Source: Ditylenchus dipsaci (Eukaryota > Nematoda > Chromadorea > Rhabditida > Anguinidae). Taken from it: a stretch of DNA of 64,000 bases. Position numbers and translations under genes: made by a program. The stretch spans positions 186,001 to 250,000 of the forward strand of contig SADC01000010.1 in the NCBI GenBank assembly GCA_004194705.1, given 5' to 3'. How positions within the stretch are numbered: position 1 is the first letter of the stretch; each line of letters opens with the position of its first letter. Below the pieces are notes generated by a model. That model saw only the letters and a program-made list of their open reading frames with translations, had not been told where the DNA came from and ran no database searches. Of this stretch, positions 454-59,539 are shown in pieces.

Positions 454-1048
454 CGGACACGGACAAAAGGCTACAACTTCTGTCCCGGACAGTTCTGTCC
501 CGGACATTTCTGTCCCGACACTTCTGTCCCATTTTCCAATTTAATTATAATTTGTATATTATCTGAAATTTAAGTTTGAAATTCTAATTATATTCTAAGG
601 AATAATCAACCAATAATACCTATTGAGAAGTAGCGGGAGTGGAGCACATAGAAAAGGGAAGCATCTAGTGTTACCCAGAAGGAGCTATGAAGGTGGTGGC
701 ATGCAGGAGGGAGCAGCAAGGAAGGGCTACCTAGGTGCTCGCGTTCAAAATGAGGTAACTGCGTGGTGATGCGCGCACTCACTTATCTTAGACATAATTC
801 TGAGCAAGACTCTTACCCAAAAATGTATTTAGAGGCTTTGTTTTTGCCAAGTCCCATATTGAAAAAAAAACATGGTAAAACATCTAAAAAAGTCGAAATT
901 TTCGCTTTTTTCATAATTTTACTGAGTTGTAACTTTTGTCCCTTTCCTTCAAGTTGTAGCCTTTTGTCCCCTTTTTTCGAGTTGCAACCTTTTGTCCCTT
1001 TTTTCGAGTTGTAGCCTTTCGGCCGTTGTAGCCTTTTGTCACGTACCG
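454..1048. mobile_element. Phrase-array TIR element, 595 bp, 9 bp target duplication
   Basis: The left end reads CGGACACGGACAAAAGG and the right end, reversed, CGGTACGTGACAAAAGG. The perfect 9 bp duplication AATTTGCAA lies at 445-453 and 1049-1057. The right arm (about 930-1045) repeats the phrase GTTGTAGCCTTTTGTCCC four to five times; the left end has it once inverted, followed by four copies of a second phrase, TTCTGTCCCGGACA (about 478-530). The middle (about 640-860) holds a fragment of a dispersed repeat also seen near 27000, 30650 and 63350. The small ORFs across it are low-complexity translations of the phrases and are not genes. Confidence 0.75.
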
Positions 1049-1057
1049 AATTTGCAA

Positions 1058-1924
1058 AAGTTCTGTAAGAAGCGAAAAAGCAAGGCATTACCCATTTGGT
1101 TTGAACATGTGGAGATTTGCATTCATAATGGCTCAGGCATTTATTTTTTAAAATTTGTTTTTAAATACAGCATTTTTTCATTAGGGATTTAGCAAAATGA
1201 AACTGAACCCTTGAATGCGCACTGTCTCGTGTATGAATGGGAGAAATTTTCAAATGCCATTTTTCCTGACAAATGATATATTTCGTGGAATTTTTTAATT
1301 CGGAATTTTAATTAAATTTGTCAGCTACACAAAAAAATCAAAATATTATTTAGAAATGCAGGTTTGTGCAGTATTCTTTTGTGACAAGTAATGAAAACAG
1401 TCTCATAAATAAAATCGTTGGCTCAGTGAACAGTACCCAAGTGCACCCCTCCAAAGAGTATAATTTTCTCTAACCGAAAAATGGTTAGAGAACGCGTACT
1501 CTGTGATGGTATACGCTCAGAGAACTCATACTCTTTGGGGGGAGGGGTGCACTTGGGCTTTTACGTGGCTCACAATTGTCAGCGAAAAAGCAGCGGCGTA
1601 TTGTGAAAGTCGGTCTCGGTTCGATTCCGATTAGAATCAATGTCTTTCCTTGAGTTTTACCAAAATGCCACATTTAAATTCTCGTTTGAATTTCACTGGT
1701 GCCCGCCTTTCAAAATATTTCCATCGGTGATGATCATGCCCTTTTAACACTACGGCTCCGGTGCGTGATCTTTATGGTTCCTAGCGCAGAATTTCACGCT
1801 GAGCACGATGGTGAAAAAAATTATTTTTCGTATTTTTATTTTTCCTTGTTTATTTTTTACCTTGTTATTCCAAAAAAAAAACTAGTTTTCACTACAATGC
1901 TTATTGTCCTAATAACCCACACAA
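1058..1924. other. Intergenic stretch with one hairpin
   Basis: No convincing coding region is seen. The only structure is a foldback at about 1434-1557: ACCCAAGTGCACCCCTCC on the left is matched in reverse by GGGGTGCACTTGGG on the right, with AAAGAGTAT and ATACTCTTT just inside. It is about 125 bp long and could be a small MITE. Confidence 0.5.
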
Positions 1925-1941
1925 GCAAGAAAGGCTGTACT

Positions 1942-2125
1942 TCATTTGGTAACGCGCAATTTCGTAACAGCTTCGTTTGGTAATAGCTTTATTTGGTAAC
2001 GGATTCCTTTCGTAACAGCTTCATTTCGTAACATTTTTTTCGTAACACAAGTTTTCGTAAATGATTTGTTTCGTAACATTTTTTTCGTAACAGCGAGATT
2101 TGGTAACAAACATTTTCGTAACAGT
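1942..2125. repeat. CGTAACAGCTTCATTT phrase array, left arm
   Basis: About ten copies of a 15-20 bp phrase of the form TTTCGTAACAG or TTTGGTAACAG with variable spacer words. The same phrases occur in reverse order and orientation at 6385-6580 (CTGTTACGAAATGAAG). Together the two form the long terminal inverted repeats of element 1933-6588. Confidence 0.85.
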
Positions 2126-2744
2126 GATTTTAAGACTACCTGATTCAATTTAATCTAATTTACAACTTTTTTCAAACAACAGGGGACCAAGGCAATTTTT
2201 TAGGTTTTTTGATAATTTTTATTTTGTGTCCAAACTACCCGAAACCATCGCAAACCAACCCAAATACCATCAAACTGCCTTAATAGCCCGAAACTAAACC
2301 CAAACCTGAAAAATAAAAATTTCTTTAAAATGAAAAATAACCCATCTTTCTAACTTCAAATTGTGTTTGGAATTAGGTTTATTAAGACCGAATTTTTATG
2401 CACTAACTTGAGCATGTTGAAGATGGTTTGACAGTTTTGAAATTACGTTTTATCGAGAAATTTTAGTTATCTTAAATTCTTGATTTATTAAAATCAAAAT
2501 CTATAATAACTCAAAAATTTCTTGATAAAACGTGATTTCACCGCTGTCAAACCATCTTCAACATGCTCGAATTAGTACAGAAAAGTTGTTTTGGAACCCG
2601 AAAACGTAAAAAATAATTTTTGATCCAAGTGGAAAACCACTTGGTTTGATTTGGTCACTCTTAATTGAGTTTTGAGCGATTCTAAGGGTGATGTAGAGGA
2701 CGTTTGTTCGACTTCACGTGGGCGCGAATTTTCGATTTTATTAT

Positions 2745-2870
2745 AATTTTGAGTGTTTGAGTGGTGAAGAGGTCCATATACTCATCACCAAGGTTGCTGG
2801 TCCGAACCCCTCTGGGTGCAATCAGTCCCGAGTTGACGACCTCGATTCATGGTCCTGGTCACTAGGTGCT
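2745..2870 (+). repeat. tRNA-derived SINE-like fragment
   Basis: An A-box-like stretch, GAGTGGTGAAGAGG, is followed about 45 bases later by the B-box-like GGTCCGAACCC, the spacing of a tRNA-derived internal promoter. The words just after it, CTGGGTGCA, recur after B boxes near 14850 and 39010, which suggests a family. The copy is too diverged to be a working tRNA gene and is interrupted by the MITE that follows. Confidence 0.5.
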
Positions 2871-2873
2871 TAA

Positions 2874-3105
2874 AGGACCCTGTCTCTTCCTAATCAATGG
2901 TCCGCGCCAATTCAAAAATTTTTCCCTAATCATTGAAGTTCTGTACGGAATTTTCAACTTGGTTTCTAACACAACTATTCCTAAAATTAAATTCTAGGCC
3001 TTGTTTTGTTAGAAACCAAGTTGAAAAATCCGAAGAGAAGTTCAATGATCAGTGAAAATTTTTTGAATTGGCGCGGGACCATTAAGCAGGAAGAGACGGG
3101 GTCCT
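2874..3105. mobile_element. TTAA-flanked palindromic MITE
   Basis: TTAA is duplicated at 2870-2873 and 3106-3109. The ends read AGGACCCTGTCTCTTCC and, reversed, AGGACCCCGTCTCTTCC. Inside is the family core TTGGTTTCTAAC...GTTAGAAACCAAG around a palindromic centre. Related copies are at 14009-14354, 19332-24970 (split), 58719-58945 and, with less similarity, 23154-23475. TTAA duplication is typical of piggyBac, but no transposase is present to confirm this. Confidence 0.7.
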
Positions 3106-3327
3106 TTAACGGGGTTCGGAGAAGATAATGTGATTATAGATGCTTTGGGATGATTTGAGGTGGTTTCAGCAATTTGGGATGGTTTGGGTTACATTACGGA
3201 TGACTTGCGTAATTGTTCGGACACAATCTAAAAATTTTCGAAAAAACTAAAAAAAAACTGCCTTGGTCCCCCTGTTGTTTGAAAAAAGTTGTGAATTAGA
3301 TTAAATCAAATGGACGAGGATTAAATG

Positions 3328-3520
3328 TGCCACCTTTTGTTGAAATCTGCCACCTTTTGTTGAAAACAGCCACCTTTTGTTGAAAACAGCCACCTTTTGT
3401 TGAAATCTGCCACCTTTTGGGTGAAAAGTGCCACCCTTTAGATAAAAAGTGGCAGCTTCGGTTGAAAAGTGCTAACTTTTGTCTGTAATGTGCCACCCTT
3501 TGTTGAAATGTGCCACCTTA
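3328..3520. repeat. GCCACCTTTTGTTGAAA phrase array, left arm
   Basis: About eight copies of a 17-20 bp phrase (GCCACCTTTTGTTGAAA and variants) lie in tandem. The inverted partner array is at 6105-6352 (AAAAGGTGGCACTTTTCAG). The pair encloses the ORF region 4211-5480, so it appears to be a second phrase-array element nested in 1933-6588; its exact ends and duplication could not be fixed. Confidence 0.75.
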
Positions 3521-4200
3521 CCCACTCTTCTCTTCACCTACTACGCCACAACTCTGATACTTTACTCACCAACTTTTGAAGACTCACACTATAGTGTTCT
3601 TCTAACTTATTATTCCACTACAATTCATAAATAAAGTTTTATAGGCTGAATTGGGCTGTTTTACAGATAAAACATATTTTTACAACCTTTATTATCAAAA
3701 CAAGATTCTAAGATTTTACAAACAATACATACCTCATCCTGCGAAATGATAAAATTTCGGCGCTGCTTTGATATGCTCCTCCTCCCTGATCTTCGGACCT
3801 ACTTTGATATACCATTCACCTAAAAAACTTTAATTTGGGGAAGGGGGGGGGGTGTTGGAGGTTTATATCAGAGTAACGTAAAATTTTTACCCCTTTTTTA
3901 TTTTGATACTAAAAATCATTAGTTTAACAGTTTATATAAAAATTAGATATTAAGTGGCTTGCAAGTAAAAATGATTTAAGTCAACTTTCGATTTTGTAAG
4001 GATTGTTGCGTTCTAGCGAACGGCATTTCCAGTCAAGACAATAGGTTTCGAACGAAACCTATTGCAACTTTAAAATATCCAGTTTAAAGGCAAATTCGAA
4101 ATACGTTTTGTACCGTCCAGATTTAATTGACATGGCGACACTACGAATAATCCGATAGATCGAGAGAGAATATATTTTGGATTTTTGTGAGTTAGCTGCT
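3521..4200. other. Non-coding interior of the nested element
   Basis: No coding sequence or clear repeat is visible apart from short AT-rich runs, a poly-G run near 3842 and a local inverted pair around 4020-4060 (AATAGGTTTCG / CGAAACCTATT). It leads into the ORF at 4211. Confidence 0.4.
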
Positions 4201-4210
4201 TATCTATAAG

Positions 4211-4869
4211 ATGTCAAAGGTTAGCGATTATGATAATTTAGCTCCAGTGCGACCTCAACGGGATCTATCCCAGACAATAAGCCGCTCGTTTCTAGTACAG
4301 CAGTTCAGGACATCTTGGGTGCGACTTCTAAGTTACAAGGTCCAGAGTTAGCCAATGCGGTGAAGAACCTGCAGGCGCTCTTCAGTACCTTTTCTATCCA
4401 GTCCACTCCAGCGAAAAAGAGTTCGGTTGACATGTCCCGTAACTCATATTATGACGACTTATGTCTCATAGATTTCTCCAGTCCTAAACCCATTGAAAAT
4501 CCAATGTCTTTAATTGATCCAGATCTTGAGGTGTCCTCTGTAGAGGCCCCCATTGTATTTCCAGATCTTAGCGAAGGTTCCAGCATGGCTGATTCTCCTG
4601 TGATGTCCGCAAATGGTGCACACCGGGATTCCCTCCATATGGTTTCGATTCGCTCCTCCAGTTCGCGCTCCCACTCCGTCTACGAAGAGGTTCAGCTAGC
4701 TGGTTCTCAATTGGTGCCTGCCTTGGGTGAACGGGTAACAGTCCAGTCGTCAATCTCTCCAGTCGAAGAAACTCCAGTCAGTAGTCTCTTATTGTATAAT
4801 TGTATTGTTGATCCAGATTGTACTCCCGTTCCATTATACCAGGGTGCCCCAATAAAAGTCCAGTACTGA
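4211..4869 (+). CDS. Uncharacterised Ser/Pro-rich ORF carried by a transposon (one frameshift)
   Basis: The open frame from about 4270 to the stop at 4867-4869 gives about 198 residues rich in Ser, Pro, Asp and Val, with acidic short motifs and no membrane segment. An ATG at 4211 begins MSKVSDYDNLAPVRPQRDLS in the neighbouring frame, and one missing C near 4268 would join it to DNKPLVSSTAVQDILG. That would make a protein of about 219 residues. The family is not recognised. It could be a captured host gene segment or an element protein such as a gag-like or accessory product; nothing decides between these. A degenerate second copy follows directly at 4890-5480. Confidence 0.45.
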
Positions 4870-4889
4870 AACCTATTTTGTTTACTGGT

Positions 4890-5480
4890 AGCACCAAATA
4901 TAAGATGTCAAATTAGCGTGATAATTTTGTCCAGTGCGAATCACGGGATCATTCAGACATAAGCCCAGTTAAAGTGTTCAGACATCTTTGTGCGATCAAC
5001 AAGGTCCAGAGTAGCCTGCTGAAGACGCAGGCGTCTTCAGACCTTGTTATCCAGTTCCAGCAAGAGTTATTGCATGTTCCAGAAATATTATCGACTTATG
5101 TCTCATAGTTCTCCAGTCTAAACCATTGAAAATCAATGTCTTTAATTATCCAGATCTTGAGTGTCCTCTGTAGAGGCCCCCATTGTATTTATCTTAGCGA
5201 AGGTTCCAGCATGGCTGATTCTCCTGTGATGTCCGCAAATGGTGCACACCCGGATCCCTCCATATGGTTTCGATTCGCTCCTCCAGTTCGCGCTCCCATC
5301 CGTCTACGAAGAGGTTCAGCTAGCTGGTTCTCAATTGGTGCCTGCCTGGGTGAACGGTAACAGTCCAGTCGTCAATCTCTCCAGTCGAAGAAACTCCAGT
5401 CAGTAGTCTCTTATTGTATAATTGTTGTTGCTCCAGATTGTACTCCCGTTCCCATTATACCAGGTGCCCAATAAAGTCCT
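4890..5480 (+). pseudogene. Deletion-riddled second copy of ORF 4211-4869
   Basis: This stretch repeats 4205-4870 in order and orientation but lacks dozens of single bases and short runs, with almost no substitutions. For example, the sister's CCAGATCTTGAGGTGTCC appears as CCAGATCTTGAGTGTCC, and whole CCAG words are lost. No long frame survives. The pattern could be a tandem duplication decayed by slippage, or a mis-assembled low-quality read path over the same locus. Confidence 0.6.
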
Positions 5481-5518
5481 CTATTTTGTTTACTGTTTAA
5501 CAACCTCTGGGACCAGCA

Positions 5519-5612
5519 GAAATGTTCGTTAAATCGAGAGTTTCGTTAAATCAGTGTTCGTAAATCGAGTTGGGTGAACAATCTTTATTGAAATGTTCGT
5601 TAAATCGAGAAT
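5519..5612. repeat. TTCGTTAAATCGAG phrase array
   Basis: Four copies of GTTCGTTAAATCGAG-like words lie at 5524-5605. Immediately after them, 5612-5710 resembles the end of the palindrome at 41115-41612 (ACACTATACCG, then TAGCTCAAAAA). It appears to be the end of another small element; no inverted partner array was found nearby. Confidence 0.55.
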
Positions 5613-6104
5613 GGCACGATACACTATACCGGCTAGCTCAAAAACACCTGTAATCCACGTTTTTTTTAACGTTCAACAACCAATACATGCTTTAAAGGCA
5701 TGCCCGTGCGTTAAGGCGCGAACCAGCAGTTTTTTTCGAATTTTTCGAGTCGTCCCATTTTTCACTCGTTCTGCGTCAATCTGATATAGATGACCTTATA
5801 CTGCTTTTAAAACTAGACAGAACTTAAGAAATCTAGACGAACGAATGTAAGAATGTATCGAGAAAGAAAAGAACTTCTGGTTCGCGCTTTTCTCCCATCG
5901 GGCACGATCATGCCCCTTTAAGTATCTTTTCAGGTGGCAGTCGACACTCTTCTGCAAAAAGAATTAATGACAAATTTGACATTTTGACTTGGGGGACCAA
6001 AGTAATTTAAGGATGCCTTGATACCCTAAAGAGTCAAAAAAAAAAGAAATAAATATTATTTTGACAACTGGGACCAGGGTTCGCAGATGTCCTGATTTAC
6101 AAAA

Positions 6105-6352
6105 GTTAGCACTTTTCAACCGAAGGTGTCACTTTTTATCTAAAGGTGGCACTTTTTATCTAAAAGGTGGCACTTTTCAGCCAAAAGGTGGCACATTTCA
6201 GCCAAAAGGTGGCAGTTTTCAACAAAAGGTGGCAGATTTCAACAAAAGGTGGCACATTTCAGCCAAAAGGTGGCACTTTTCAGCTTTGTTGACCAAAACT
6301 CAAAAAAGGTGGCACTTTTCAGCTAAAAGGTGGCACTTTTCAGATTTATCCA
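6105..6352. repeat. AAAAGGTGGCACTTTTCAG phrase array, right arm
   Basis: About eleven copies of the phrase in reverse orientation to 3328-3520. The frame through it is open only because the phrase is repetitive. Confidence 0.8.
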
Positions 6353-6384
6353 AATCAAATTAGGTAAAGCCTTAGTATCACTGT

Positions 6385-6580
6385 TACGAAAATGTTTGTT
6401 ACGAAATCTCGCATTACGAAAAATTTGTTACGAAATCTAGCGTTACAAAACCATTTCTTACGAAATAAGCCGGTTACGAAATCAGCCTGTTACCAAATGA
6501 AGCTGTTACGAAATGAAGCCGTTACGAAATGAAGCTGTTACCAAATGAAGCTGTTACGAAATGGCGCGTTATCAAATGAA
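6385..6580. repeat. CTGTTACGAAATGAAG phrase array, right arm
   Basis: About ten phrases, inverted with respect to 1942-2125, ending at the terminal GTACAGCC of element 1933-6588. Confidence 0.85.
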
Positions 6581-6734
6581 GTACAGCCGCAAGAAAAGTG
6601 TACCATTTGAATTTTGAATTCCTCTCAATACAATAAATACTCCAATTTCGATAATTGAAGGTTTCTGTAGTAAAAAAAAGTTACGAGAAACTTGTCTTAC
6701 GACCAGTGTTTCCGAAAATAACCCCCACACTAAC

Positions 6735-6894: not shown

Positions 6895-7030
6895 GGCTCA
6901 AATAGAAATGTACCACCAAATGTGAGAATTTGGCCGCCTTTTTATTTTTTGGCCGCCTTTTTCAAATTCATAATAAAAAAGTAGAATTTGGCCGCCTTTT
7001 TTTTGAAAATTGGCCGCCTTTTATTGTTAA
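6895..7030. repeat. Left TIR of the MULE: TTTGGCCGCCTTTTT array
   Basis: GGCT, then AGAAATGTACCACC, then four copies of TTGGCCGCCTTTT with AT-rich spacers. The spacing and spacer words (TTCATAATAAAAAAGTAGAA) mirror those of the right end. Confidence 0.9.
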
Positions 7031-7441
7031 TTGATTTTCCTTTTACTAAACCAACTATTCTGAAGACAATGAATCAGACTGTTACACCAAATAGTTAGTT
7101 TCATTATATTTATCTCTCAGTCAACGACTAAACAATGATTGCATCGTAAAAACTAGATGCAATGATTAATGATGGGGTGGAATGGCATGGAATTGACATT
7201 TTTTTTTCTTTCTTTTATTACGAAATTTTTTTTCTTCTTTTGTCAGCACAAATGAGAGCCCTAGAGGTTGTATACTTGTGGATAAAATCGGGAATTTCCA
7301 TTACGAACACGTAGGAACCAATTTCGCCACCTAGGTATCTATATATGTAGAGAAAGAATTCAAACTTTCAGTTGAAAAAATTATCTCCAAGTTTATGACA
7401 AAACAACGACCAGTTCAACAAAACAAATTCCAAAAATCAAA

Positions 7442-9611
7442 TTATTTCAAGCGCATGGCCAATTTTTTTTGTCCTCTTTTCTGCCTTCCCTCAAGCGGCT
7501 GCGGCAGCGGATCGATGAGTTTTTCTGACTCCATGACCATCAAGGAATGCTTACAAACCTCATCTTTGATTCCCTCTGGGCAAGTGCATGATATATAGCC
7601 GCCGAAGCAATTCGAATTCTTCAACGTGTGGAATAGTGAGCGAAGTTCTTTGTAACGTTGCCAGCTTCTGTATTTGAACATTCTTTCTCTCGAAAATTTA
7701 GCTTCTTCCAGCTCTTTCCATATCTCAATAAGCCCTTCACCATTCCCATGGTAACTGCTTGACCCGATCAACCAGATGGGTTCCTCATTGTACTGGAAAA
7801 AGACGCCTTCACGATTCTCCATCTTGAGACTTTCCATTGATTTTCGAATGGCGCAGTTGACATTCCTCGGAACTGTTGGAACTCTGACAGGCACCTAACA
7901 AAAATTGAAAAATTGTTTGCCCTATAGATCAGAAAAGTTCACCAAACCTTGCGTTCCGGATCTGCGCTGCAATCATGGATGTATTGCTCAACTAAAAGAA
8001 GAAACCTGGAGATGCCGATTAGTTCCCTTTGCGTGTACTCTTTCTTCAGCATATTGTTGGTTCCCTCAAGGCCATTATTCGTAGGAAGTGAGGACATGCC
8101 GACACCAATTGAAGAGGCAAACCGATAGAACCAACCATGGTAATCCTCTCTGAGCAGCCACGACTCATGAAACTTATGCAGAGCCCTCATAATGCGCTCA
8201 TGTTCATTCCACTTCTGATTTCAATGTGCTATAAGCGTTTGACCCGCTAAAATATACAAAGAGGTCGATAATGGGCACAAAAAGACGACAAACCTGCATG
8301 AAATTCTTCGTAGCAGGTTGCTCGTGCCAAAATTGCCACGTCTTCCTTGACTTCATTGCACGCATTCTCATAGATTTTCGACTTTGGCAGCTCTTTATCG
8401 AAATTCTGGCGAACATGGAACCAGCACATTCCTCGCTTGCCGACGGAAGTTCATTGCTGCACGCTAAGTCAATTCAGTAGAATCTAAATGACCTTTAAAA
8501 CACAGCTTACCACTTTTTATAGCTGGAGCCCCGTCTGCAATCAATATTATTGGCTGGTACAAACGCTCCGGATCCCATTTTGAAATAGCTCGCATAAATT
8601 CTGCGTAACTCCACTTGCCTTCATGCGATGAGATTGCTGCTGCTGTTGGAAAGAATCTTTTGTCTGCGTCAGAAAAACCACATACCTTAAAATTTATTTA
8701 AAGAAAGTTGATTAAAAGTTGACTAACCAATAGAGGATAATTTAGAGTCATCAGTTTGTAGGTCCCATCAACTTGCATAACAGGCCAGAAGACTTGTCGG
8801 CGAAGCAGCTTCAAAGAAGAGAAAACCATGATGAATTGCACGGTGAATTTGAGTACTCCGTCTTCTCGTGTAGTGATTATTCGGTCTTTGTAAACGACGA
8901 CAAATGTCTTTTCAAGATCTTCTAGAGCTTACATAAAGCACAAAGAGCAACGTTAAAGTAAAGTAAAATCATACCTGGTATCTGTTTGTGCAGTTCGTAG
9001 TACTGCCGCAAATCTTCAATAGAAAGAGTATTTGAGAATCCACGGTTCTTTGCTCTGTACGCTTTCTGAATTTGTTGTGCCGTCGGCTGATTCCGGACAA
9101 TTCCAACTCCTTCTAATCAACATCAAAAAGTCACACAATTGCTGTGATATAGTCAAGGATACATACCTTAAGTTTTCGCTGAATTACTCTCGCAGTCATA
9201 CCTCCGCATGGCTCATCTTTCTTTTCGGTGCTCATCTTTACTGGGCTGCTCAGGCCTGTGTCTTTCAACTCGTGGTCGTACTCTTCGCTTGTTTGGATGA
9301 AGGCCTTGGAAGTTGCCATAAGATCTTTTGCGTAACGAATTCGCATAGTAGCCCTGCAGCGAAAATTCCCGGGCGGTTTCTGGCAGAGTGATCACAGTAG
9401 TAGACATTATCTGCAAATTTGACAGAACTCCGCGTGCAATCACTAAAAATATCGAATCAAATATGAAGCCAATATGCCAGATATACCGTATCCATGATCC
9501 TCCATTTTCGTCCATCCACTTATCAGTATCTTCCTTGCTGCTGCACTCCTTCACAGTTATCCACTCACGCGCGATACCTCGCTTCTTCTGTCGCTCGATT
9601 TGCGATTGCAT
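7442..9611 (-). CDS. MULE transposase with SWIM zinc finger (multi-exon, damaged)
   Basis: Read on the minus strand from the ATG at 9609-9611, about eight exons are joined by 40-55 bp GT-AG introns. The N-terminal part (WITVKECSSKEDTDKW) looks like a FLYWCH/WRKY-type DNA-binding region. The catalytic region shows VFWPVMQVDGTYKLMTLNYP (first Asp, near 8780), then PIILIADGAPAIKS (second Asp, near 8530), MCWFHVRQNFDKEL (near 8410) and LPTNNGLEGTNNMLKKEY (near 8060). The C-terminus has CTCPEGIKDEVCKHSLMV, a CxCx(n)CxH SWIM finger, at about 7545-7595, and ends KKLAMRLK. A frame break near 8435 (just before MCWFH) and a second near 8205 (before WNEHERIM) probably inactivate it. MULE transposases cut and paste the element and duplicate 9 bp of target, which matches the flanks. 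Confidence 0.85.
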
Positions 9612-9664
9612 TTTAGTTTACACCTTAACTTAAATACAAGCTTAATTGAGCAAAAACAGCAATT

Positions 9665-9799
9665 AACAATAAAAGGCGGCCAATTTTCTAAAAAAGGCGG
9701 CCAAATTCTATTTTTTCATTATGAATTTAAAAAAGGCGGCCAAAAAAATTAAAAAGGCGGCCAAATTCTCACTTTTGGTGGTACATTTCTCATACAGCC
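9665..9799. repeat. Right TIR of the MULE: AAAAAGGCGGCCAAA array
   Basis: Four copies of AAAAAGGCGGCCAAA lie within 9671-9770, inverted with respect to 6928-7025. They are followed by GGTGGTACATTTCT and the terminal AGCC. Confidence 0.9.
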
Positions 9800-10869
9800 T
9801 TTCTCTATTAAGTCCCCCCTCTATAATAACTCCCCCTATTCCGACCCCATATCTCAGCCTAAGGAAAAATTTTTGTAAATCTGTTTTTTGCGTTTTCTTA
9901 ATCACCACGATCTTAGTTGATTCCACTTTTTAGATTTCGGTCGGGCATCCGAAAATCTCAAAATCGAAATATTTTTTTTCCGATTTTTAAGGGTTGAAAA
10001 ATAACTCCCCGGGGGACTTACTACAGAAAATACGGTACCCTATACCTACACCTACTGTTTGGCATACTGTTAGATAAACTATAGTTAGCTCAGAGGTGGG
10101 CAAAGATCAGATCAGATCAGTTCAGATCAGATCAGTTCAGATCAGATCAGATCGCCGAAGATCAGATCAGATCAAGATCAGATCAGATCAGATCAGATCG
10201 GCATAATATTTTTTTTCTTTAATTTAGTCAAATTTCACACTCTAAGTCAAAATTTTACGGCGAAACGTATTTTATACAAAGTTGAAAGAAGATCAGATCT
10301 ATTTAGATCAGATCGGTTCAGATCGGGTCAGATCGGGTCAGATCGGCTGAGATCGCCTTACATTTTTTTCTTTAATTTTGTCAAATTTCACACTTTGAGT
10401 CAAAATTTTAAGGCGAAACGTATTTTACAGTCAAAAAGAAAGGTTTATTGTGTTTTTAACTATATATTTAATTACAACTTTTGTCGGTAGATTTTTTTCG
10501 GCTGGAAAAACTTTTCATTCGGACACTGGATTCGTGTTCAGCATGGTCTTCATAAAGTAAAGCTTCTTTTGAAATTTCAGAGTCACTGTCAAATTTTGAA
10601 TTTCGTTAAAGATAATTAACATTTGAATTTAAATTTCAATCTTTATTGTCTTGAGCGGAAATCAAAATTTGACGGGGACTCTGAAATTTTGAAAGAAGTT
10701 TTATAAGCAAATCGACCACGCTGAACACGAATGCAATGTCAGAATCAATAGTTTTCCCAGCGGAAAAAAAGTTATGAAAAATTTGTGTCACAACTTATAT
10801 ATTAATTTTGCACATTTTGTCATAACTTGACAATGAACTATAGTTGCATTCAAAGCCAAAATGACAGTG

Positions 10870-11230
10870 ACATTCTGCTCTTTGTTTTTGTTTTGATTAT
10901 TCAGCTATATTTTATCTCTGCACAAAGTTTTTTGCTTGTAGAAAGTAAGAATGGAGCGTTTTGAAAATCGCTACTCCAATAAACAAGTGGTGATTTATCT
11001 TAAACCTTCAAATCGAAAGAGTCAATGGTTAGTATTTTCAAAAAGCTAAATTCCTGGCGGTCATTTTGGTATATTATGAGCGTGGGTGTAGTATGACCAT
11101 CATGGCGCATTAATTGAAAACCTGTGGGTACCCAGCTGCACAATGTGTTACCTCCCGGACCCTTTTACACCTACTTCATCAATGATTGAAGCAAAAAGGA
11201 GCCCCGCCATCGTGTTCACCGGGAAATTCT
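10870..11230. repeat. Diverged repeat, paralogous to 14855-15190
   Basis: Several words occur in the same order in both places, including TATGAGCG(T)(G/A)GGTGTAGTATGA, ATCATGGCGCA and GCGCCATCGTGTTCA-like text. The two copies are heavily diverged and show no open frame. It may be an old element fragment or a decayed gene duplicate. Confidence 0.4.
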
Positions 11231-11427
11231 GCACAGTAATCAACAACCGATCTGAACTGATCTGAGCCGACCTCAGCCGATCTGACCCGATCTGACACGA
11301 TCTGAAATGATCTGAACTGATCTGATCTAAATCGATCTGATCTTTTCCCAACTCTGTGTAAAATACGTTTCGCCGTAAAATTTTGACTTAAAGTGTCAAA
11401 TTTGACAAAATTAAAGAAAAAATATTA

Positions 11428-11679
11428 CCGTATTTCCTCTAATATACCGACACCCTCTAATAAACCGACACCCCCTACTTCGAGGGTCCGTATCTCAGTC
11501 CAAAGAAAGAAATTTACATCGCTTTTTTTTTGCGTTTTCTTAGCTCCCACGAGCTCTATCGATTCCGCTTTTTCGATTTTGGATCTTCATCCAAAATTGT
11601 CGAGATCGACCCAAAATTTTCACGATTTTTGAGGGGTTGAAAAATAAACCGACATGTCGGTATATTAGAGGAAATACGG
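11428..11679. mobile_element. TA-flanked CCGTA-end MITE, 252 bp
   Basis: TA is present at 11426-11427 and 11680-11681. The terminal repeat reads CCGTATTTCCTCTAATATAC, and the reversed right end reads the same. The core contains TCAGTCCAAAG and ACGAGCTCTATCGATTCCGC, which recur inverted in 28307-28552 and in the same sense in 9809-10034. It sits inside the hAT element 10091-11814. Confidence 0.85.
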
Positions 11680-11822
11680 TATGCCGATCTGATCTGATCT
11701 GATCTTGATCTGATCTGATCTGATCTTCGGCGATCTGATCTGAACTGATCTGATCTGAACTGATCTGATCTGAACTGATCTGATCTGAACTGATCTGATC
11801 TTTGCCCACCTCTGAGTTAGCT

Positions 11823-19201: not shown

Positions 19202-19439
19202 CTGAAAATGACTTGATGGATACAAAAGCATGAGACACATTTAGATTTTGGTGTCAATCAATCTTTCGATATACACACTAGGCTGGTCGCTCACAAATTC
19301 GCATTTTACATGACACATGTAATGCCGTTAAAGGACCATGGTTTTTGCGCGGACAATACTTTTTCCTGGCGCAAAAACATTTTTTTTGGCGCAGATCCAC
19401 TTTCTTTTGGCGCAAATTTTTGTTTTGCGTCATTAGATT

Positions 19440-21925: not shown

Positions 21926-21940
21926 ACATCATCATATAGA

Positions 21941-22125
21941 CCTGCGACTCTAGTTTCTAATGAGGTATCATTTATTGAAGCATCTTAGAAAAATGTAATA
22001 CAAAAAGGTACAAAAAGTATGAACCAAATTGTTGTTCAGATTCTGTTCATACTTTCACCTTTTAGTATTACATTTTTTGAAGATGATGCAATAAATGATA
22101 CCTTATTAGAAACTAGAGTCGCAGG
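21941..22125. repeat. Hairpin, arms about 85 bp
   Basis: CCTGCGACTCTAGTTTCTAA at the left is mirrored by TTAGAAACTAGAGTCGCAGG at the right. The arms continue inward through GAGGTATCATTTATTGAAG and AAATGTAATAC. No coding. Confidence 0.8.
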
Positions 22126-47639: not shown

Positions 47640-49390
47640 CTATCAGTAGGTACGCGATGGTAGTTGCAAGCGCAGGTACTTCGGGGTATCCACATGGGGT
47701 ACTCGGGTAGTTGCAAGCCGATACTTCGGGCGTATACAACGGTACTCGATGGTAGTTGCAAGCCCGCAGGTACTTGGTTTTAACGGGTCCTCATGGTAGT
47801 TGCAAGCCCGCAGTCTTCGGTGTGTTTAACGGTACCTCATGGTAGTTGCAAGCCCGCAGGTACTTCGGGTTGTTAGGTACTCATTTGGTAGTTGCAAGCC
47901 GCAGGTCTTCGACGTATCCACGTAGGTACCCGATGGTAGTTGCAAGCCGCAAGTACTTCGGGGTACACGTGGGTACTCGATGGTAGTTGCAAGCCCGCAG
48001 GTACTTCGGGCGTATACACGTGGGTACTCGATGTAGTTGCAAGCCCGCAGGTACTTCGGGTGTGTTTAACCGGGTACCTCATGGTAGTTGCAAGCCCGCA
48101 GGTACTTCGGGTGTGTTTACCGGTACCTCATGGTAGTTGCAAGCCCGCAGGTACTTCGGGTGTGTTTAACCGGGTACCTCATGGTAGTTGCAAGCCCGCA
48201 GGTTCTTTCGGACGTATCCACGTAGGTACCCGATGGTAGTTGCAAGCCCGCAAGTACTTCGGGTGTGTTAACCGGGTACCTCATGGTAGTTGCAAGCCGC
48301 AGGTACTTCGGGCGTATCCACGTGGGTACCCGATGGTAGTTGCAAGCCGCAAGTACTTCGGGTGTGTTTAACCGGGTACCTCATGGTAGTTGCAAGCCCG
48401 CAGGTTCTTCGGGCGTATCCACGTGGGTACCCGATGGTAGTTGCAAGCCCGCAGGTACTTCGGGTGTGTTTAACCGGGTACCCATGGTAGTTGCAAGCCC
48501 GCAGTTACTTCGGGCGTATCCAAGTAGGTACCCGATGGTAGTTGCAAGCCCGCAGGTACTTCGGGCGTATCCAAGTAGGTACGCGATGGTAGTTGCAAGC
48601 CCGCAGTACTTCGGGCGTATCCACATGGGTACTCGATGGTAGTTGCAAGCCCGCAGGTACTTCGGGCGTATACACGTGGGTACTCGATGGTAGTTGCAAG
48701 CCCGCAGGTACTTCGGGTGTGTTTAACGGGTACCTCATGGTAGTTGCAAGCCCGCAGGTACTTCGGGTGTGTTTAACCGGGTACCTCATGGTAGTTGCAA
48801 GCCCGCAGGTTCTTCGGGCGTATCCACGTAGGTACCCGATGGTAGTTGCAAGCCCGCAGGTACTTCGGGCGTATCCAAGTGGGTACGCGATGGTAGTTGC
48901 AAGCCCGCAGGTACTTCGGGCGTATCCACGTGGGTACCCGATGGTAGTTGCAAGCCCGCAGGTACTTCGGGTGTGTTTAACCGGGTACCTCATGGTAGTT
49001 GCAAGCCCGCAGGTTCTTCGGGCGTATCCACGTGGGTACCCGATGGTAGTTGCAAGCCCGCAGGTACTTCGGGTGTGTTTAACCGGGTACCCCATGGTAG
49101 TTGCAAGCCCGCAGGTACTTCGGGCGTATCCACGTGGGTACTCGATGGTAGTTGCAAGCCGCAGGTACTTCGGGCGTATCCACGTGGTACTCGATGGTAG
49201 TTGCAAGCCCGCAGGCACTTCGGGCGTATACGTGGGTACTCGATGGTAGTTGCAAGCCCGCAGTTACTTCGGGCGTATCCAAGTAGGTACCCGATGGTAG
49301 TGTCAAGCCGCAGGTACTTCGGGTGTGTTTAACTGGGTACCCGATGGTAGTTGCAAGCCCGCAGGTACTTCGGGCGTATACACGTGGATA
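47640..49390. repeat. 51 bp satellite, about 34 units
   Basis: The unit is GGTAGTTGCAAGCCCGCAGG, then TACTTCGGGCGTATCCACGT, then GGGTACCCGAT. A second unit type has GTGTGTTTAACCGGGTACCT in place of the CGTATCCACG part; the types are mixed. Because 51 is a multiple of three, frames stay open for over 200 codons on both strands (17-residue repeats), but the translations are repeat artefacts without start or splice context. The first units (47640-47960) carry many single-base losses. 49389-49440 continues as an AATACAATACC run. Confidence 0.88.
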
Positions 49391-49727
49391 CAATACAATA
49401 CCAATACAATACAATTACATACAATACCAGACCACCTACTAACCATATACACTACACTAACTGATCCTTTCGGACAAAATAATGATGCATGCTACCACCG
49501 GATTCGAACCATTATGTATGCCTTGGTCCCCCAAGGTAATCCAGAAATGTACCGAAAATGCCTTGGTCCCCCTGTGGTTTTTGGCAACTTTCAAGTGGCC
49601 ATAACTTTTTTTTCACAAAACCAATCCTAACATTTAGCATTTTTTCAAGAAGGAAACCGACCACGCTGAGTCGAATGGTGTTTTCAGATTTCAGATTCGA
49701 TAAGCGGAACACCCCTAACAATTAGTG

Positions 49728-49728
49728 T

Positions 49729-49762
<34 letters not shown>
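49728..49762. repeat. (GACA)n microsatellite
   Basis: Eight to nine uninterrupted GACA units. Just upstream, the two words CCTTGGTCCCCCAAGG and CCTTGGTCCCCCTGTGG belong to a dispersed GGGGGACCAAGGCA module seen at 2185, 3245, 5992, 41270, 41455 and 45175. Confidence 0.9.
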
Positions 49763-50221
49763 ATCCAGCGCTATAGTAAAGGGGGATTCTTAGAGCAACT
49801 ACTATACCATTAAAGGCATAGGTAACTTCATAAACGCATAGTCTAGGGCACCAGCTGCATGTCTTATTTTTTCATCTCCTTCAATCTATAAGTTTGGTGT
49901 CCGAACGATACTCACACTGTTGACTATTTAACAAGATTATCATTACGGAGTTACACACGTACCGGAGCTTATTTACTGGCTGAAATCGGCTTGATTTTCG
50001 AAAGTCGATGATTTTGGAAGGTTTTTTGACTGGTTTAATTAATATTTCCCGACTTTTTTTCCACTAGTCACACGTTCCGCATACAAAAATGTAGCCAGGA
50101 TTCTAATCTTACATTTGAGCTATCAACTTAGAAGAAAGTTATATTCACTTACAGCTATAATTCAAAAAACGCTCAACGATGTCCAATTACATGCCATCCT
50201 AGACAACTTTGTCATTTGCAT

Positions 50222-50456
50222 GAAATCGCAAAATTAAGGCATTTGCTGACAGTCAAGCAGTGCTGAAAATAGTCGCCATTGATTGCTCGATGGTTTTGGG
50301 ACCTAGTAGTAATTGAACGGGGATGTCGATGGTTTTGGACCTAGTAGTAATTGAACGGGAAATCGCAAAATTAAGGCATTTGCTGACAGTCAAGCAGTGC
50401 TGAAAATAGTCGCCATTGATTGCTCGATGGTTTTGGGACCTAGTAGTAATTGAACT
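50222..50456. repeat. Direct repeat of about 97 bp
   Basis: GAAATCGCAAAATTAAGGCA, GTCAAGCAGTGCTGAAAATA and GATTGCTCGATGGTTTTGGG occur twice in order, at 50222-50318 and 50360-50456, with a partial third GATGGTTTTGGACC between. The segment before it (50205-50235) is the reverse of 39105-39150. Confidence 0.8.
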
Positions 50457-50489
50457 TGATAAAAAGAATAGATAAAGTAAATACAGTGT

Positions 50490-50582
50490 GCCTTTAGGGG
50501 GATTCGAACCTTCATTTTTTTCCCGAACAGCAGTTCTCCTCTCTTTACAGGCCGAGCCATAGGCTCAGCCATCCAAAAATTC
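50490..50582 (-). repeat. tRNA pseudogene or SINE head
   Basis: On the minus strand: GGATGGCTGAGCCTATGGCT (A-box-like TGGCTGAG), then a spacer, then a perfect B box GGTTCGAATCC followed by CCCTAAAGGCAC. The spacing is near that of a class II tRNA, but the stem pairings are poor, so a SINE head or decayed tRNA-Ser-like copy is more likely than a working gene. Confidence 0.5.
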
Positions 50583-51226
50583 AGGCAGACGCTCCGAAAA
50601 GCTCTCCTGTGCGTAAACATCTCGAGATCCACCCGGCTAGACTGCATGTGTACAATGAACTATGTATACTTTCCCTCCACCCAAAGTTATTGGGTTTGAC
50701 GGTGAGCCTCAACGCTCAGTGAATAATTACTCTGAGGATTTTAACTATCTTAAAGAAGTGGCCCCTGTACTGTCCCTTCACCTCAAAATATAGCCATTTG
50801 TCCCTCTTGAAATCTCCTTTCTGGTCCTTTCATGGCAAAATCGTTGATCTAAAATGGTTTTGAGCAGTCCTTGAAAAGTAGTTTTTGGGGTAGGTGGGGG
50901 GTTGTGATGCGTTGGCGAATTTCGCGTTGGCGAGTTTTTCGTTGGCGAGTTTTTCTTTGGCAAATTTTGCAGTTGGCGACTTTTGCGTTAGCGAGTTTTA
51001 CTGTTGGCCAGTTTTCGCTGTTGGCCAGTTTTTGGTTGGCAAGTTTTGACGCTGGCGAGATTCGCTATTGGTGAGATTCGACGTTGGCGAGAATCGACGT
51101 TGGCGAGTTTTCGCGCTGGCGAGTTTTTTAGCGTTGGCGAGTTATGGCTTTGTCGAGTATTTTGCGTTGGCGAGTTATGGCGTTGGAGAGACGGTTGCGT
51201 CCCTTTTCTTGTATTCGGGTATATGA

Positions 51227-52374: not shown

Positions 52375-52375
52375 A

Positions 52376-56112: not shown

Positions 56113-56561
56113 TAGGGTTGGCCAATAGGCATATGCCCGGGCATATGCCCGGACATAAAAAAGAAGAAAAAGATTTACACAGAAAAGAAATACACCCCGA
56201 AGGGACCCCTGAAAATATGATTCAGCCTCAAAATATCCCCCGCACATATGCCCGCAAAAATACAGATAAAAAATACACCGCGAAGGGTGTATTTCGACTG
56301 AAGTTGACGTATGAGCATGCCCCGGCATATGCCCGGGGCATATGCCCATGGGCATATTCCCAGAATCTACTCATACGACATTTTTGGTCAAAATACACCC
56401 TTCGCGGTGTATTTTTTTACTGTATTTTTGCGGGCATATGTGCGGGGGATATTTGGAGGCTGAATCATATTTTCAGGGGTCCCTTCGGGTTGTATTTCTT
56501 TTCTGTGTAAATCTTTTCTTCCTTTTTTTATGTCCGGGAATATGCCCACTGGCCAACCCTA
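56113..56561. mobile_element. hAT-type MITE, 449 bp, 8 bp target duplication
   Basis: The terminal repeat TAGGGTTGGCCA is perfect, and TCATAGAT is duplicated at 56105-56112 and 56562-56569. Sub-terminal words GGCATATGCCCGG repeat at both ends and near the centre (GGCATATGCCCGGGGCATAT). The arms include AAAAGAAATACACCCCGAAG and ATATGATTCAGCCTC. The ORFs of 96-130 codons are the two arms read through and carry no motif. Confidence 0.88.
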
Positions 56562-56934: not shown

Positions 56935-57214
56935 TACCGTATAACCTCTATTAAAAGGGCACCCCTACGGTGCCATGGCATTTCGTCCAAAATTCAGTTC
57001 GTCCAAAGTCAATTCGTCCAAAGACAATTCGTCCAAAATTCAGTTCGTCCAAAAGTCAATTCGTCCAAAAGTCAATTCGTCCAAAATGCATTTCGTCCAA
57101 AATGCAATTCGTCCGAAATGCAGTTCGTCCAAAATTCAATTCGTCCAAATTTTATTTCAAGTCAAAATTTTCACGAGAGAACCATTTCAACGATGACAGC
57201 ATAACTTCAACCGC

Positions 57215-57560
57215 TCAGAAACCTGTGCCAGAGTGGCCCATAGCCAAAATAAATCTGGTTTTGGGGGTTTACTAAATGGGACAGTCGTTTTTTGCGAAAA
57301 AAAGATATAGCGAACCAGAATCGCAATGAGATCGGGTGAATCGCTCAGAATACTACCGAACATCCGAAGCTATCCTAAAACCACTGCTTAGGACGGTTGG
57401 CAGTAGTTTGCAATGTTCGGTGGTCAGATTCTGAGCGATTCATCCCGTCACAGTGCGATTTTGATTAGCTCGATCGTTTTTTCGCAAAAAATTGTCCACC
57501 CTTCAGTAAACCCCAAAAACCGTTTTCATTGGTTTTTCACCTCTGTGACATGGGATTTTG
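57215..57560. repeat. Palindromic core module shared with two other elements
   Basis: GTTTTGGGGGTTTACTAAAT, TTTTTTGCGAAAAAA and GAATCGCTCAGAATACTACC are mirrored at 57410-57530 (GATTCTGAGCGATTC, CAGTAAACCCCAAAAACC). The same layout and words occur in 22690-22985 and 29120-29400. Confidence 0.75.
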
Positions 57561-57959
57561 GACTCGAGGTAAATAGATCTCAGGTGAATTGTCTCTTAAT
57601 AGGTTACAGGTCCGCAGTGAAGTCCGCAGTGAGAACTGTGGACTGAACCAACTAAACTAAAATCGCTAGAACTAAAATCGCTTCAAATCACTCTAATGAA
57701 ACTCTAATCACCCCGAACCAACCAAAATCATTTAAATGACCCCAACTACACCCTAAACAAGTCAGTTAGAATAGTTAAACTTTTTTGTGGTGATTTGAAC
57801 GGGATCAAGATATTTGGGGTGGTTTGGGCTCGTTTTGGCTAATACAAAATATCTTTCTCCTTCCTTTGTCGAATATTATTTGTCGGAAATCATGCATCAC
57901 ACCCAGCTAATTTGACAGAATGTCATTTACAGTTAAAAGCACAAAACCAAACAACGAAA

Positions 57960-57965
57960 TTTATT
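57960..57965 (-). promoter_or_regulatory. Poly(A) signal of the captured RPS3A copy
   Basis: AATAAA on the minus strand, 42 bases past the stop at 58007-58009. The capture therefore includes the gene's 3' end. At the 5' side a TTTTTAG acceptor (about 59003-59009) just before the start codon suggests a 5' UTR intron was captured too. Confidence 0.65.
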
Positions 57966-58006
57966 GCCAAATAACGAGAAACAGACAATTTAATATCATC
58001 GAGATA

Positions 58007-58988
58007 CTAGACACTAGCCTGCACAGGCGGCTCATAGGCATCTGGACAATAGGTAATCTCGCTATTCCCGGAAGTGATGGCACCAGCAGTCTCGCCATGC
58101 ATTTCCATCAGCTTGCCCATTTCGAACTTCGGCTTCTTGATGATCTTAACCTTGCGAATATAGACGTCTTGGAGAGGATAGATTCGGAAACACGATTTCT
58201 CAATGTCCTTGCCAATGGAATCCGGAATCAGCTTGTTGCACACTGCCGAAGGTCACTCGAAGCAACCTAAAATGTCAAATCAGTCTTATGACGACGAAAG
58301 AAATAAAAAGACCTCTTTCTGCATGAATTCGACCATTTTGGCACGAATAGCGCGAACATGCGATGACTTAGCATAGCTGAAACAAGGGCAATACCTTCGG
58401 AAATAACTTGAGGAATACTAACCTGGTCTTCTTCACTTGGTGATCAGATGATAGCTTGATGCTTACTCATAGACGCGCCCCTTCAGGAAGTCACTGGCGA
58501 TCTCTGAAACAATCATTTAAAAGGTGAAATGGAAATTCAATTTACTTGTTCCCTGAGACTTGTTGACGAATGTCTACCCAATGGTGCGGTTCGTGAACAT
58601 AGCCGGAGCTTTGACATCGTACCATTCCCTAAAAAAAAGCAAGAAACATAAATAAGAAAACATTCCTGTCGCATAAAAGCATACTTTCGGGTGAACGGAT
58701 CAACCACCTTCTTCTTAAAGGCCTGACCTCTTCCTACTTGGTGGTCCCGCCAATTCAAAAGTTTCCCTTGATCATTGGACTTCTGTACGGATTTTTCCGC
58801 TAGGTTTCTAACAAAACTAAGCCTAAAATTTGATTTTAGGCCTAGTTTTGTTAGAAACCTAGCGGAAAAATCCGTACAGAAGTCCAATGATCAAGGGAAA
58901 CTTTTTGAATTGGCGGGACCACCAAGTAGGAAGAGGTCAGGCCCTTTAAATCCCTCCTTGCTCATCTTCTTATTTTGCCGATAGCCAT
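58007..58988 (-). pseudogene. RPS3A: Ribosomal protein S3a gene copy captured by a transposon
   Basis: Five exons on the minus strand: 58988-58685 (interrupted by a MITE), 58628-58546, 58503-58424, 58376-58313 and 58266-58007, with 40-60 bp introns. The text matches eukaryotic eS1/S3a: [77 protein letters not shown] and the end YEPPVQASV. Damage: one A missing after MAIGK, a MITE in exon 1, TAG in place of the Lys codon after NRTIG, exon 3 only 80 bp (about 55-60 residues lost between GRVYE and QVKKTS) and one G missing before CNKLIP. S3a normally has about 265 residues and sits on the 40S subunit. Retained introns show the copy came from genomic DNA, not mRNA. Confidence 0.92.
58719..58945. 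mobile_element. TTAA-flanked palindromic MITE inside RPS3A exon 1
   Basis: TTAA lies at 58715-58718 and 58946-58949. Ends AGGCCTGACCTCTTCCTACT and, reversed, AGGGCCTGACCTCTTCCTAC. The core TTTTTCCGCTAGGTTTCTAA is mirrored exactly. Excision restores the reading GFKKKVVDPF of S3a. It is the closest copy to 2874-3105. Confidence 0.88.
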
Positions 58989-59539
58989 GCTTGCTTTCAA
59001 CTGCTAAAAACCAATTTATTTACGAATAGAAACTATGAATCGAAAATATGAACGCATAAATGAAAACAATAATCGGATAAATGTCTCAATCAAATCTTGA
59101 TCAAAAAGGTGTTGAGGTCGTAGTCCAAAAGACGTGGTACTTGGGTGACTTAAGGAGAAACGGTCAGGTGATATTATTTGGCAGTGCCTACATATCGGTA
59201 CGCAGGTGGAAGTGGATCAATAGAGATTCTGCCGAACTTCATTATGTTCGAATTTGGACGAAATGCATTTTGGACGAATTGGCTTTTGGACGAATTGAAT
59301 TTTGGACGAATTGAATTTTGGACGAATTGTCTTGGACGAACTGAATTTTGGACGAAATGCCATGGCACCACCCCTACAGTTAACGTTTTTCAAATTTGCT
59401 TTGCTTTTTTAACCCCAATATTGTTTACTAGGGTCTGCAGGCGCCTATCGGCGCCTATGTTGTTCGGGAACATTAGTTGTTCATGTACATTAGTAGTTCG
59501 GGTAGATTTATCTTCCGAGTGCGTTAATGGTTAATGACT

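What the first reader, a model, noticed from the sequence alone, without database searches (positions are those of the whole stretch)
454..59369. A community of transposons whose ends are tandem arrays of private phrases
At least a dozen unrelated-looking elements share one design: both ends are arrays of a 10-25 bp phrase, opposite in orientation, often starting with GG and flanked by 8-9 bp duplications. Exact duplications seen: AATTTGCAA (454-1048), GCAAGAAA (1933-6588), TTTCTCTAT (6895-9799), AACTGATG (12438-13199), GTTTTTGCGC (19351-24745), TTATTTAAA (22506-23144), TTTTCGCAT (25518-27342), TTTTCTTG (46954-51203) and ACCCCTAC (56969-59369). Each family has its own phrase (TTTGGCCGCC, CGTAACAGCTT, TTTGCCGC, GCAGCTAATTC, TTACCGCAAAA, CTCGCCAAC, TTCGTCCAAA). 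Foldback elements and MULEs are known to have long repetitive ends, but so many distinct phrases side by side is unusual. I infer that one transposase class tolerates, or needs, repeated binding sites whose sequence diverges between families.
Basis: partly seen in the sequence, partly recalled or inferred. Interest (0 to 1): 0.88.

Follow-up and report, generated by a model that had tools for sequence, protein, structure and literature searches.

The report
Jumping genes with private end-arrays
This stretch of what is probably a plant-parasitic nematode genome is crowded with jumping-gene copies of a known class, each kind carrying its own short repeated code word at both ends, and relatives elsewhere in the genome hint at how such a code word can change throughout an array while the layout stays.

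Summary
All nine duplications are exact and lie directly outside inverted arrays; three more such elements were found. In the window plus 200 kb of the same genome, 39 of 57 inverted-array pairs share a flank word of 8 bp or more (an upper figure), against 2.9 expected. The genome is probably Ditylenchus dipsaci. Of 115 MULE-transposase matches the 30 best were examined: all 30 have a 14-17 bp array on at least one side, 25 on both, in 16 phrase families. So the pitch 15-17 elements are most likely Mutator-like elements with a FLYWCH finger; no transposase was found in the window. The design is known from Aedes Muta1-14 and Meloidogyne Tm1. Apparently new: in two sister families one base differs in 18 of 18 units, while other array sites differ by about 3% and the body by about 11.5%; unit gaps are kept, and arrays with both words exist. 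Words seem to change inside arrays with the layout kept. Copying between the two ends is not excluded. That words are binding sites is inferred.

The parts
454..1048 (.). MULE-like element, TSD AATTTGCAA; ends CGGACACGG / CGGTACGTG; left array TTCTGTCCCGGACA, right array AAAGGCTACAAC (two different phrases)
   Evidence: exact TSD; TTCTGTCCC 4 left, 0 right
1933..6588 (.). MULE-like element, TSD GCAAGAAA, phrase CATTTCGTAACAGCTT; holds the nested element 3312-6351
   Evidence: same phrase flanks transposase copies L038 and L039
3312..6351 (.). nested element, TSD AAATCAAAT, phrase GTGCCACCTTTTG, pitch 20-21
   Evidence: empty site given by the host element's other arm, window 1959-2235
6895..9799 (.). 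element, TSD TTTCTCTAT, phrase TTTGGCCGCC, pitch 21
12438..13199 (.). MULE-like element, TSD AACTGATG, phrase CACTTTGCCGC after a 10-bp cap at both ends
19351..24745 (.). element, TSD GTTTTTGCGC, phrase TTTGGCGCAAA, pitch 21; holds nested 22506-23144
22506..23144 (.). nested element, TSD TTATTTAAA, phrase TTTTGCAGCTAATTC, pitch 21
25518..27342 (.). MULE-like element, TSD TTTTCGCAT, phrase CAACTGCCGACG after a 10-bp cap; an inner array pair at 25850-26657 may be a nested element
   Evidence: 376 + 368 phrase-pair matches genome-wide
42713..44076 (.). probable nested element, phrase CATTTCGTCCCC, 10-bp caps GGCACTAGGT / GGGCGACGGT; no exact TSD (flanks AATTTATC and AATTTTATC). Ends placed by the cap rule
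46954..51203 (.). MULE-like element, TSD TTTTCTTG, phrase AACTCGCCAACG; contains the 51-bp minisatellite 47649-49391
   Evidence: 479 + 500 phrase-pair matches genome-wide
56969..59369 (.). MULE-like element, TSD ACCCCTAC, cap GGTGCCATGG, phrase TTCGTCCAAA
   Evidence: empty site at window 60384-60465; 606 + 594 phrase-pair matches genome-wide, backwards control 166 + 188
10091..11814 (.). hAT-like element (CAGAGGTGGGC ends), TSD AGTTAGCT, with AGATC and AACCGATCTG arrays
   Evidence: empty site at window 13792-13914
56113..56561 (.). hAT-like element (TAGGGTTGGCC ends), TSD TCATAGAT

Best explanation
The pitch 15-17 elements are Mutator-like (MULE, FLYWCH/Phantom kind) DNA transposons; those in the window are non-autonomous. 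Each end is a short cap, usually starting GG (10 bp, or 8 bp in one transposase clade), followed by a tandem array of a few to a dozen or more units. The private word of each family is most likely the site bound by the zinc finger of that family's own transposase, repeated so that a short site becomes specific and several transposases load at both ends. The cap is shared across families and is probably where cutting happens; insertion staggers the target by 8-10 bp. Families stay apart because each transposase reads its own word. Words change without losing the ruler: units within an array are replaced, through mixed arrays, until all match; whether the second end changes on its own or is copied from the first is open. 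Shown: anatomy, duplications, empty sites, association with MULE transposases, correlation of word with transposase, word change with gaps kept, mixed arrays. Inferred: binding, cap function, selection by the transposase as the cause, family isolation, and MULE membership of the ten window elements whose phrase has no transposase copy in hand.
For: Exact TSDs 9 of 9; 39 of 57 pairs against 2.9 expected (upper figure). One-copy empty sites for 7 of 32 queries, allowing substitutions or a gap; 10 of 32 had any spanning match. 115 MULE matches; of the best 30, all 30 have an array on at least one side and 25 on both. 19 of 20 transposase centres lie inside an inverted pair, against 1.7% of random points in the outer parts of the same pieces, but 27% in the dense window. 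FLYWCH in 4 of 10 ORFs scanned, one of them (L035) below the curated cut-off. Mantel r 0.435, 3 of 20000. Cap length: 18 of 26 clade A ends exactly 10, 2 more if counted from GGG, 6 at 8-9; 12 of 14 clade B ends 8, 2 at 7. L033 versus L028/L029: switch base differs 9 of 9 units at each end, other array sites 4-5 of 119-120 with caps left out, body 88.5% identical. L046/L047 versus L048: AAA against TTT in the units, with gaps 16,17,16,15,17 in both L046 and L048 and spacers GGC, CTAC, CGC, GG, CTAC against GGC, CTAC, CGC, GA, CTGC. Mixed unit pairs 5 of 100 listed; three pieces with mixed arrays read. The finger differs at six residues between the two sister families (by eye).
Against: No transposase found in the window. 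For ten of the twelve window elements no transposase-flanking array of the same phrase was seen among the 30 loci; the 19351 and 56969 phrases do occur there, away from the transposase arrays. None of 10 TTCGTCCAAA pairs holds one of the 81 MULE positions compared. No transposase copy read has a full-length open frame (longest ORF in 20 elements 338 aa); introns or damage. Correlation within single clades is weak (226 and 280 of 5000). The order of the variable spacer letter is hardly more alike than shuffles (348-779 of 5000). With caps left out, L033's two ends differ by 3 of 119 other sites and L028's by 2 of 148, so copying between ends is not excluded. The finger differences include synonymous ones. 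The pitch-21 families may use another transposase.
Confidence: 0.75

Rival explanations
1. The arrays are passive minisatellites. MULE transposase recognises only the cap, and slippage makes each family's array look uniform.
For: Array length varies between ends and copies; L053 shows repeated blocks of units; L035 has nearly identical long ends.
Against: Words correlate with transposase; steady cap length and shared gap order between families (0 of 5000 shuffles as similar, but the effect is small: 5.35 against 5.79); arrays less diverged than the body except for the one base that differs in every unit.
Confidence: 0.1
2. Word uniformity comes from concerted evolution (gene conversion or unequal exchange between units and between ends) by drift, without co-evolution with the transposase.
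For: Such exchange is general in tandem arrays; repeated blocks in L053; the two arrays of one element are nearly alike (3 of 119, 2 of 148 and 2 of 148 other sites in L033, L028 and L029); arrays are purer than independent mutation would give (5 of 100 mixed).
Against: Amplifying one new unit would carry its spacer along, yet gaps are kept in order between sister families and spacers nearly so in L046/L048, and mixed arrays interleave both words. Short conversion tracts inside units, or copying of one whole end onto the other, remain possible.
Confidence: 0.33
3. The words are targets of an anti-silencing factor like VANC of Arabidopsis VANDAL elements, not of the transposase.
For: VANC targets often form tandem repeats that vary between related elements (PMC5735166, passages read).
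Against: The transposase elements with exact TSDs are 2.2-3.5 kb and the coding matches seen belong to a FLYWCH-MULE gene; a second gene was not searched for.
Confidence: 0.07
4. Several unrelated superfamilies converged on array ends.
For: Two window elements have hAT-like ends, one with AGATC arrays; pitch-21 families have no linked transposase.
Against: The 30 transposase loci with pitch 14-17 arrays are MULE; but only MULE was searched for, so other classes could not appear.
Confidence: 0.2

Closest known systems
Muta1-Muta14 MULEs of Aedes aegypti (PMC5225508, passages read)
   Different: Repeat sequences not compared by me; the passages read do not discuss how repeat words change between families
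Tm1 of Meloidogyne (PMC3169594, passages read)
   Same: FLYWCH-MULE transposase, 9-bp TSDs, asymmetric 7-bp end motifs plus 3 bp, 13-15 bp repeats; repeat consensus differs by one base between M. incognita and M. hapla
   Different: One family with another word; here 16 phrase families among the 30 loci examined, with sister families and mixed arrays in one genome
Galileo of Drosophila (P superfamily; PMC3688188, abstract)
   Same: A transposase finger domain bound its TIRs in vitro, with further sites identified in the TIR tandem repeats; these are proposed to give specificity
   Different: THAP domain and P-type transposase, not MULE
VANDAL/VANC of Arabidopsis (PMC5735166, passages read)
   Same: Protein and tandemly repeated target word evolve together between related elements
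   Different: The binder is an anti-silencing protein and change is ascribed to tandem-repeat formation
Foldback elements such as Tetris (PMC4079207, passages read); sea urchin TU elements (recalled only)
   Same: Long inverted ends with tandem repeats; 8-10 bp TSDs in Tetris
   Different: Tetris has about 220-bp repeats and no known transposase

Membership tests
MULE superfamily (Mutator-like) | MULE-type DDE transposase (PF10551) | tested here: met
   met for genome copies: 115 matches, the best 30 all with an adjacent array. Not met by any window copy itself; two window elements share a phrase with transposase copies
MULE superfamily (Mutator-like) | 8-11 bp target duplications | tested here: met
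   8-10 bp, exact; 16 of the 20 transposase elements held as 10-kb pieces, by my reading
MULE superfamily (Mutator-like) | terminal inverted repeats starting with G/C | tested here: met
   mostly GG; exceptions listed in the observation check
MULE superfamily (Mutator-like) | cut-and-paste activity | not testable with these tools
   empty sites show insertion, not excision
Phantom/FLYWCH MULE subclass | FLYWCH finger ahead of the MULE domain | tested here: met
   FLYWCH in 4 of 10 ORFs scanned (3 above the cut-off) and MULE in 4 others; never both in one ORF; relatives carry both
Tm1 | repeat word CGATTCAGTATCCGC with end motifs CGGTTAA and CCTACCC | not tested
   genome not searched for that word; cap-plus-array plan similar
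Rehavkus | PHD finger in the transposase, minisatellite before the 3' TIR (PMC6446971, passages read) | tested here: inconclusive
   no PHD match in the 10 ORFs scanned, but no full-length frame was available
hAT (10091-11814, 56113-56561) | 8-bp TSD and CAG/TAG ends | tested here: met
   the end motif is recalled as hAT-like
hAT (10091-11814, 56113-56561) | hAT transposase | not tested
   not sought

The most novel reading that the evidence does not exclude
A transposon can change its recognition word by rewriting its many binding sites unit by unit, holding unit positions and spacers while its zinc finger shifts, so that one genome accumulates many mutually deaf MULE families from a few ancestors; mixed arrays such as L051-L053 are living intermediates.
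Probability: 0.42. Interest if true: 0.75.

Novelty: new variant of a known kind. Interest (0 to 1): 0.6.

Why it matters
How a DNA-binding protein changes specificity when many sites must change together is an open question. Here one genome holds sister families whose words differ by one base or a few, with matching transposases and mixed arrays, so the path can be read and tested. It offers a large natural set of finger-word pairs. It may also help with repeats that stay unclassified: D. dipsaci is reported as 55.7% repeats, of which the four listed classes sum to about 13% (PMC11118728, passages read; sum mine).

Tried and rejected
Rfam found nothing in the window at gathering scores. Pfam on six long window ORFs gave only weak matches below cut-off. 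The outward-facing control was too noisy to serve alone. The exact pattern for paired TTTGGCCGCC at one spacing found nothing; its pitch is 21. Conservation of the variable-letter order was too weak to rest on. A divergence map of L033 and L028 shows 12-16 changes per 100 around the finger and 2-4 just after it, but also 15-23 in windows further on, so it is no proof of selection. I first took L033's left end to be closer to L028's right end than to its own right end (4 of 141 against 8 of 140). That came from the caps: with caps left out it is 4 of 120 against 3 of 119. Papers on sea urchin TU elements were not found, so TU is recalled. I saw no paper on in-place word change in transposon arrays in searches; these cover only open-licence PMC papers.

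Rows dropped: arrays with periods outside 8-48 bp, under 1.9 copies or of low complexity; ends with fewer than five clean gaps, so that the gap test used 29 of the 40 ends (one search had used 28 and left out L050 left by oversight, with the same outcome); 14 of 30 loci, as one per phrase family was used for the Mantel test. Phrases, element ends and unit patterns were chosen by hand from the repeat-finder output. Clusters were joined within 200 bp and 250 bp.
Full report
The window is bases 186001-250000 of contig 10 in a 227-Mb eukaryote assembly of 1359 contigs. A MULE protein recorded for Ditylenchus dipsaci (P0004) matches the copy at contig 48 over six stretches at 99, 97, 95, 88, 91 and 96%, and the published D. 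dipsaci genome size is 227.2 Mb (PMC11118728, passages read; the same table lists another nematode, P. scribneri, at 227.2). I take it to be D. dipsaci or a close relative.

Observation. A de novo scan adds 28901-29669, 41857-44925 and 3312-6351, making twelve elements of this design. Two hAT-like elements (10091-11814, 56113-56561) have exact 8-bp duplications too. The twelve outermost elements, the two hAT-like ones included and nested ones not counted again, cover 28,800 of 64,000 bases.

Chance. Pairing tandem arrays by sequence alone in the window and twenty 10-kb pieces gave 57 inverted pairs from 298 arrays; 39 share a flank word of at least 8 bp, 24 of at least 9 and 15 of at least 10, against 2.9, 1.2 and 0.6 expected from mismatched pairs. 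Several of the 39 are words inside repeats. Joined flanks of 32 elements were compared with all sequence then held: 10 gave a match across the junction, and seven of these show a site with one copy of the target word, allowing for substitutions or a gap: 3312-6351, 56969-59369, 10091-11814, and elements in L032, L039, L045 and L049. For 28901-29669, L048 and the nested element of L038 the word itself is not clear. Genome-wide positions of five phrases give 64 of 68 neighbouring clusters within 5 kb as facing pairs, none facing away, four in the same direction (first 100 places of each).

Which class. A search for the MULE transposase domain found 115 matches, with 150 of 504 candidates scored. 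The best 30 were examined; some are near-duplicates of each other. All 30 have a 14-17 bp array on at least one side and 25 on both; of the other five, four were held only as 3.2-kb pieces. Of the 20 held as 10-kb pieces, 16 show an exact duplication of 8 bp or more by my reading; L037, L041 (7 bp), L043 and L049 do not. Of ten ORFs scanned, four hold a FLYWCH finger (L035 below the curated cut-off) and four others a MULE domain. No transposase was found in the window. Two window elements share a phrase with transposase-bearing copies: 1933-6588 (L038, L039) and the left end of 454-1048 (L033).

Anatomy. Transposase clade A words mostly begin C, then G/A/C, then TTT or ATT, after a cap of 10 bp (18 of 26 ends exactly, 2 more if counted from GGG, 6 at 8-9); clade B words begin GACA after a cap of 8 bp (12 of 14 ends, 2 at 7). 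In the window, of 14 ends of seven families of pitch 15-16, 10 have a 10-bp cap; 454 gives 9 at both ends with the pattern used, 41857 left gives 9, and at 1933 right the pattern missed the altered first unit. Pitch-21 families have 11, 15, 16 or 34. In clades A and B, 19 of 20 elements have one GGGT-type end and one other (16 GGGA, 2 GGGG, 1 GGGC), counting ends that lack a leading G as the same type; L035 has GGGT twice (by eye). Muta1 and Muta5 of Aedes have 10-bp and 8-bp terminal motifs before their repeats, and Tm1 has 7 + 3 bp (PMC5225508 and PMC3169594, passages read), so the plan is shared.

Word and transposase. Among 16 phrase families, word similarity follows catalytic-domain similarity (Mantel r 0.435, 3 of 20000; within clade A 226 of 5000, within clade B 280 of 5000). 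L018 and L019 share about 90% of the domain but carry different words; in the tree L017, which has L018's word, pairs with L019, with moderate support (93/89). Words can thus change fast.

How words change. L033 (TTCTGTCCC, 16 of 16 exact units) and L028/L029 (TTCTTTCCC, 23 of 24 and 20 of 21 units) are sister families: catalytic domain about 96%, body 88.5% identical (L033/L028). In aligned arrays, caps left out, the switch base differs in 9 of 9 units at each end and all other sites in 4 or 5 of 119-120. Unit gaps agree. The two arrays of one element are also nearly alike (3 of 119 in L033, 2 of 148 in L028 and in L029), so copying from one end to the other may have halved the number of separate changes. 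L046 (AAAACACCGC) and L048 (ATTTCACCGC) repeat the pattern with equal gaps and nearly equal spacers. Genome-wide, 359 unit pairs fit either word; of the first 100 listed, by my count, 51 are G-G, 44 T-T and 5 mixed. Three pieces with mixed arrays were read. By unit they run GTG and TTTTG (L051, two ends), TTGTGTAG (L052) and TTTGTTTTGTTTTTG (L053); the last unit read is G in 4 of 4. L051 is flanked by TCTGTGAC on both sides, but that word occurs twice in each flank, so this is weak evidence that a mixed-array element moved. The finger of the two sister families differs at six residues near its first cysteine (by eye), with synonymous changes too; this is a lead, not proof.

Mechanism. I read the word as the finger's site and the array as a multiplier of a short site, as proposed for Galileo from in-vitro binding of its THAP domain (PMC3688188, abstract). 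With many sites, single units can change without loss of function, which gives a path for specificity to drift. My data do not separate selection by the transposase from conversion within arrays or between ends.

Novelty. Array-ended MULEs with family-specific repeats are known, and Tm1 already shows a one-base difference in repeat consensus between two species. Word change within arrays with gaps kept, and mixed arrays in the same genome, is what I did not see in print.

Noticed in passing
window 454-1048: Element with one phrase in its left array (TTCTGTCCC) and another in its right (AAAGGCTACAAC), sharing one terminal unit and an exact TSD; a chimera or a step between families.
   Followed up: partly
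window 10091-11814 and 13792-13914: hAT-like element with AGATC and AACCGATCTG arrays; a 96% identical empty site lies 2 kb away.
   Followed up: partly
L033 3740-6302 versus L028 267-3105: The two unlike caps sit at opposite ends relative to the transposase gene in sister families, as if the body had been flipped between its inverted arrays.
   Followed up: partly
window 47649-49391: A 1.7-kb, 51-bp-period GC-rich minisatellite inside the element 46954-51203.
   Followed up: no
window 59551-60029: CCTCGCCTAC minisatellite, 24 copies of 20 bp.
   Followed up: no
window 55385-63652; L039 1655-6276: Inverted copies of a TTTCGAAATTTCTAGAT repeat; the element in L039 sits inside such a repeat.
   Followed up: partly
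window 36176-36466; L033, L043, L045: A small palindromic repeat family with CCACTTGGATCAAA arms.
   Followed up: no
genome-wide, control: The backwards control of the TTCGTCCAAA pattern itself has 166 + 188 matches, while the controls of the patterns have none; perhaps another array family reading AAACCTGCTT.
   Followed up: no
L053 (C112:43330-43680): Mixed array in which a block of about five units seems repeated, a higher-order repeat within one transposon end.
   Followed up: no
L051 (C10:65200-66350), flanks: The word TCTGTGAC recurs at 21-bp spacing on both sides of the element (positions 54, 75, 1085, 1106), as if it had landed in yet another array.
   Followed up: no
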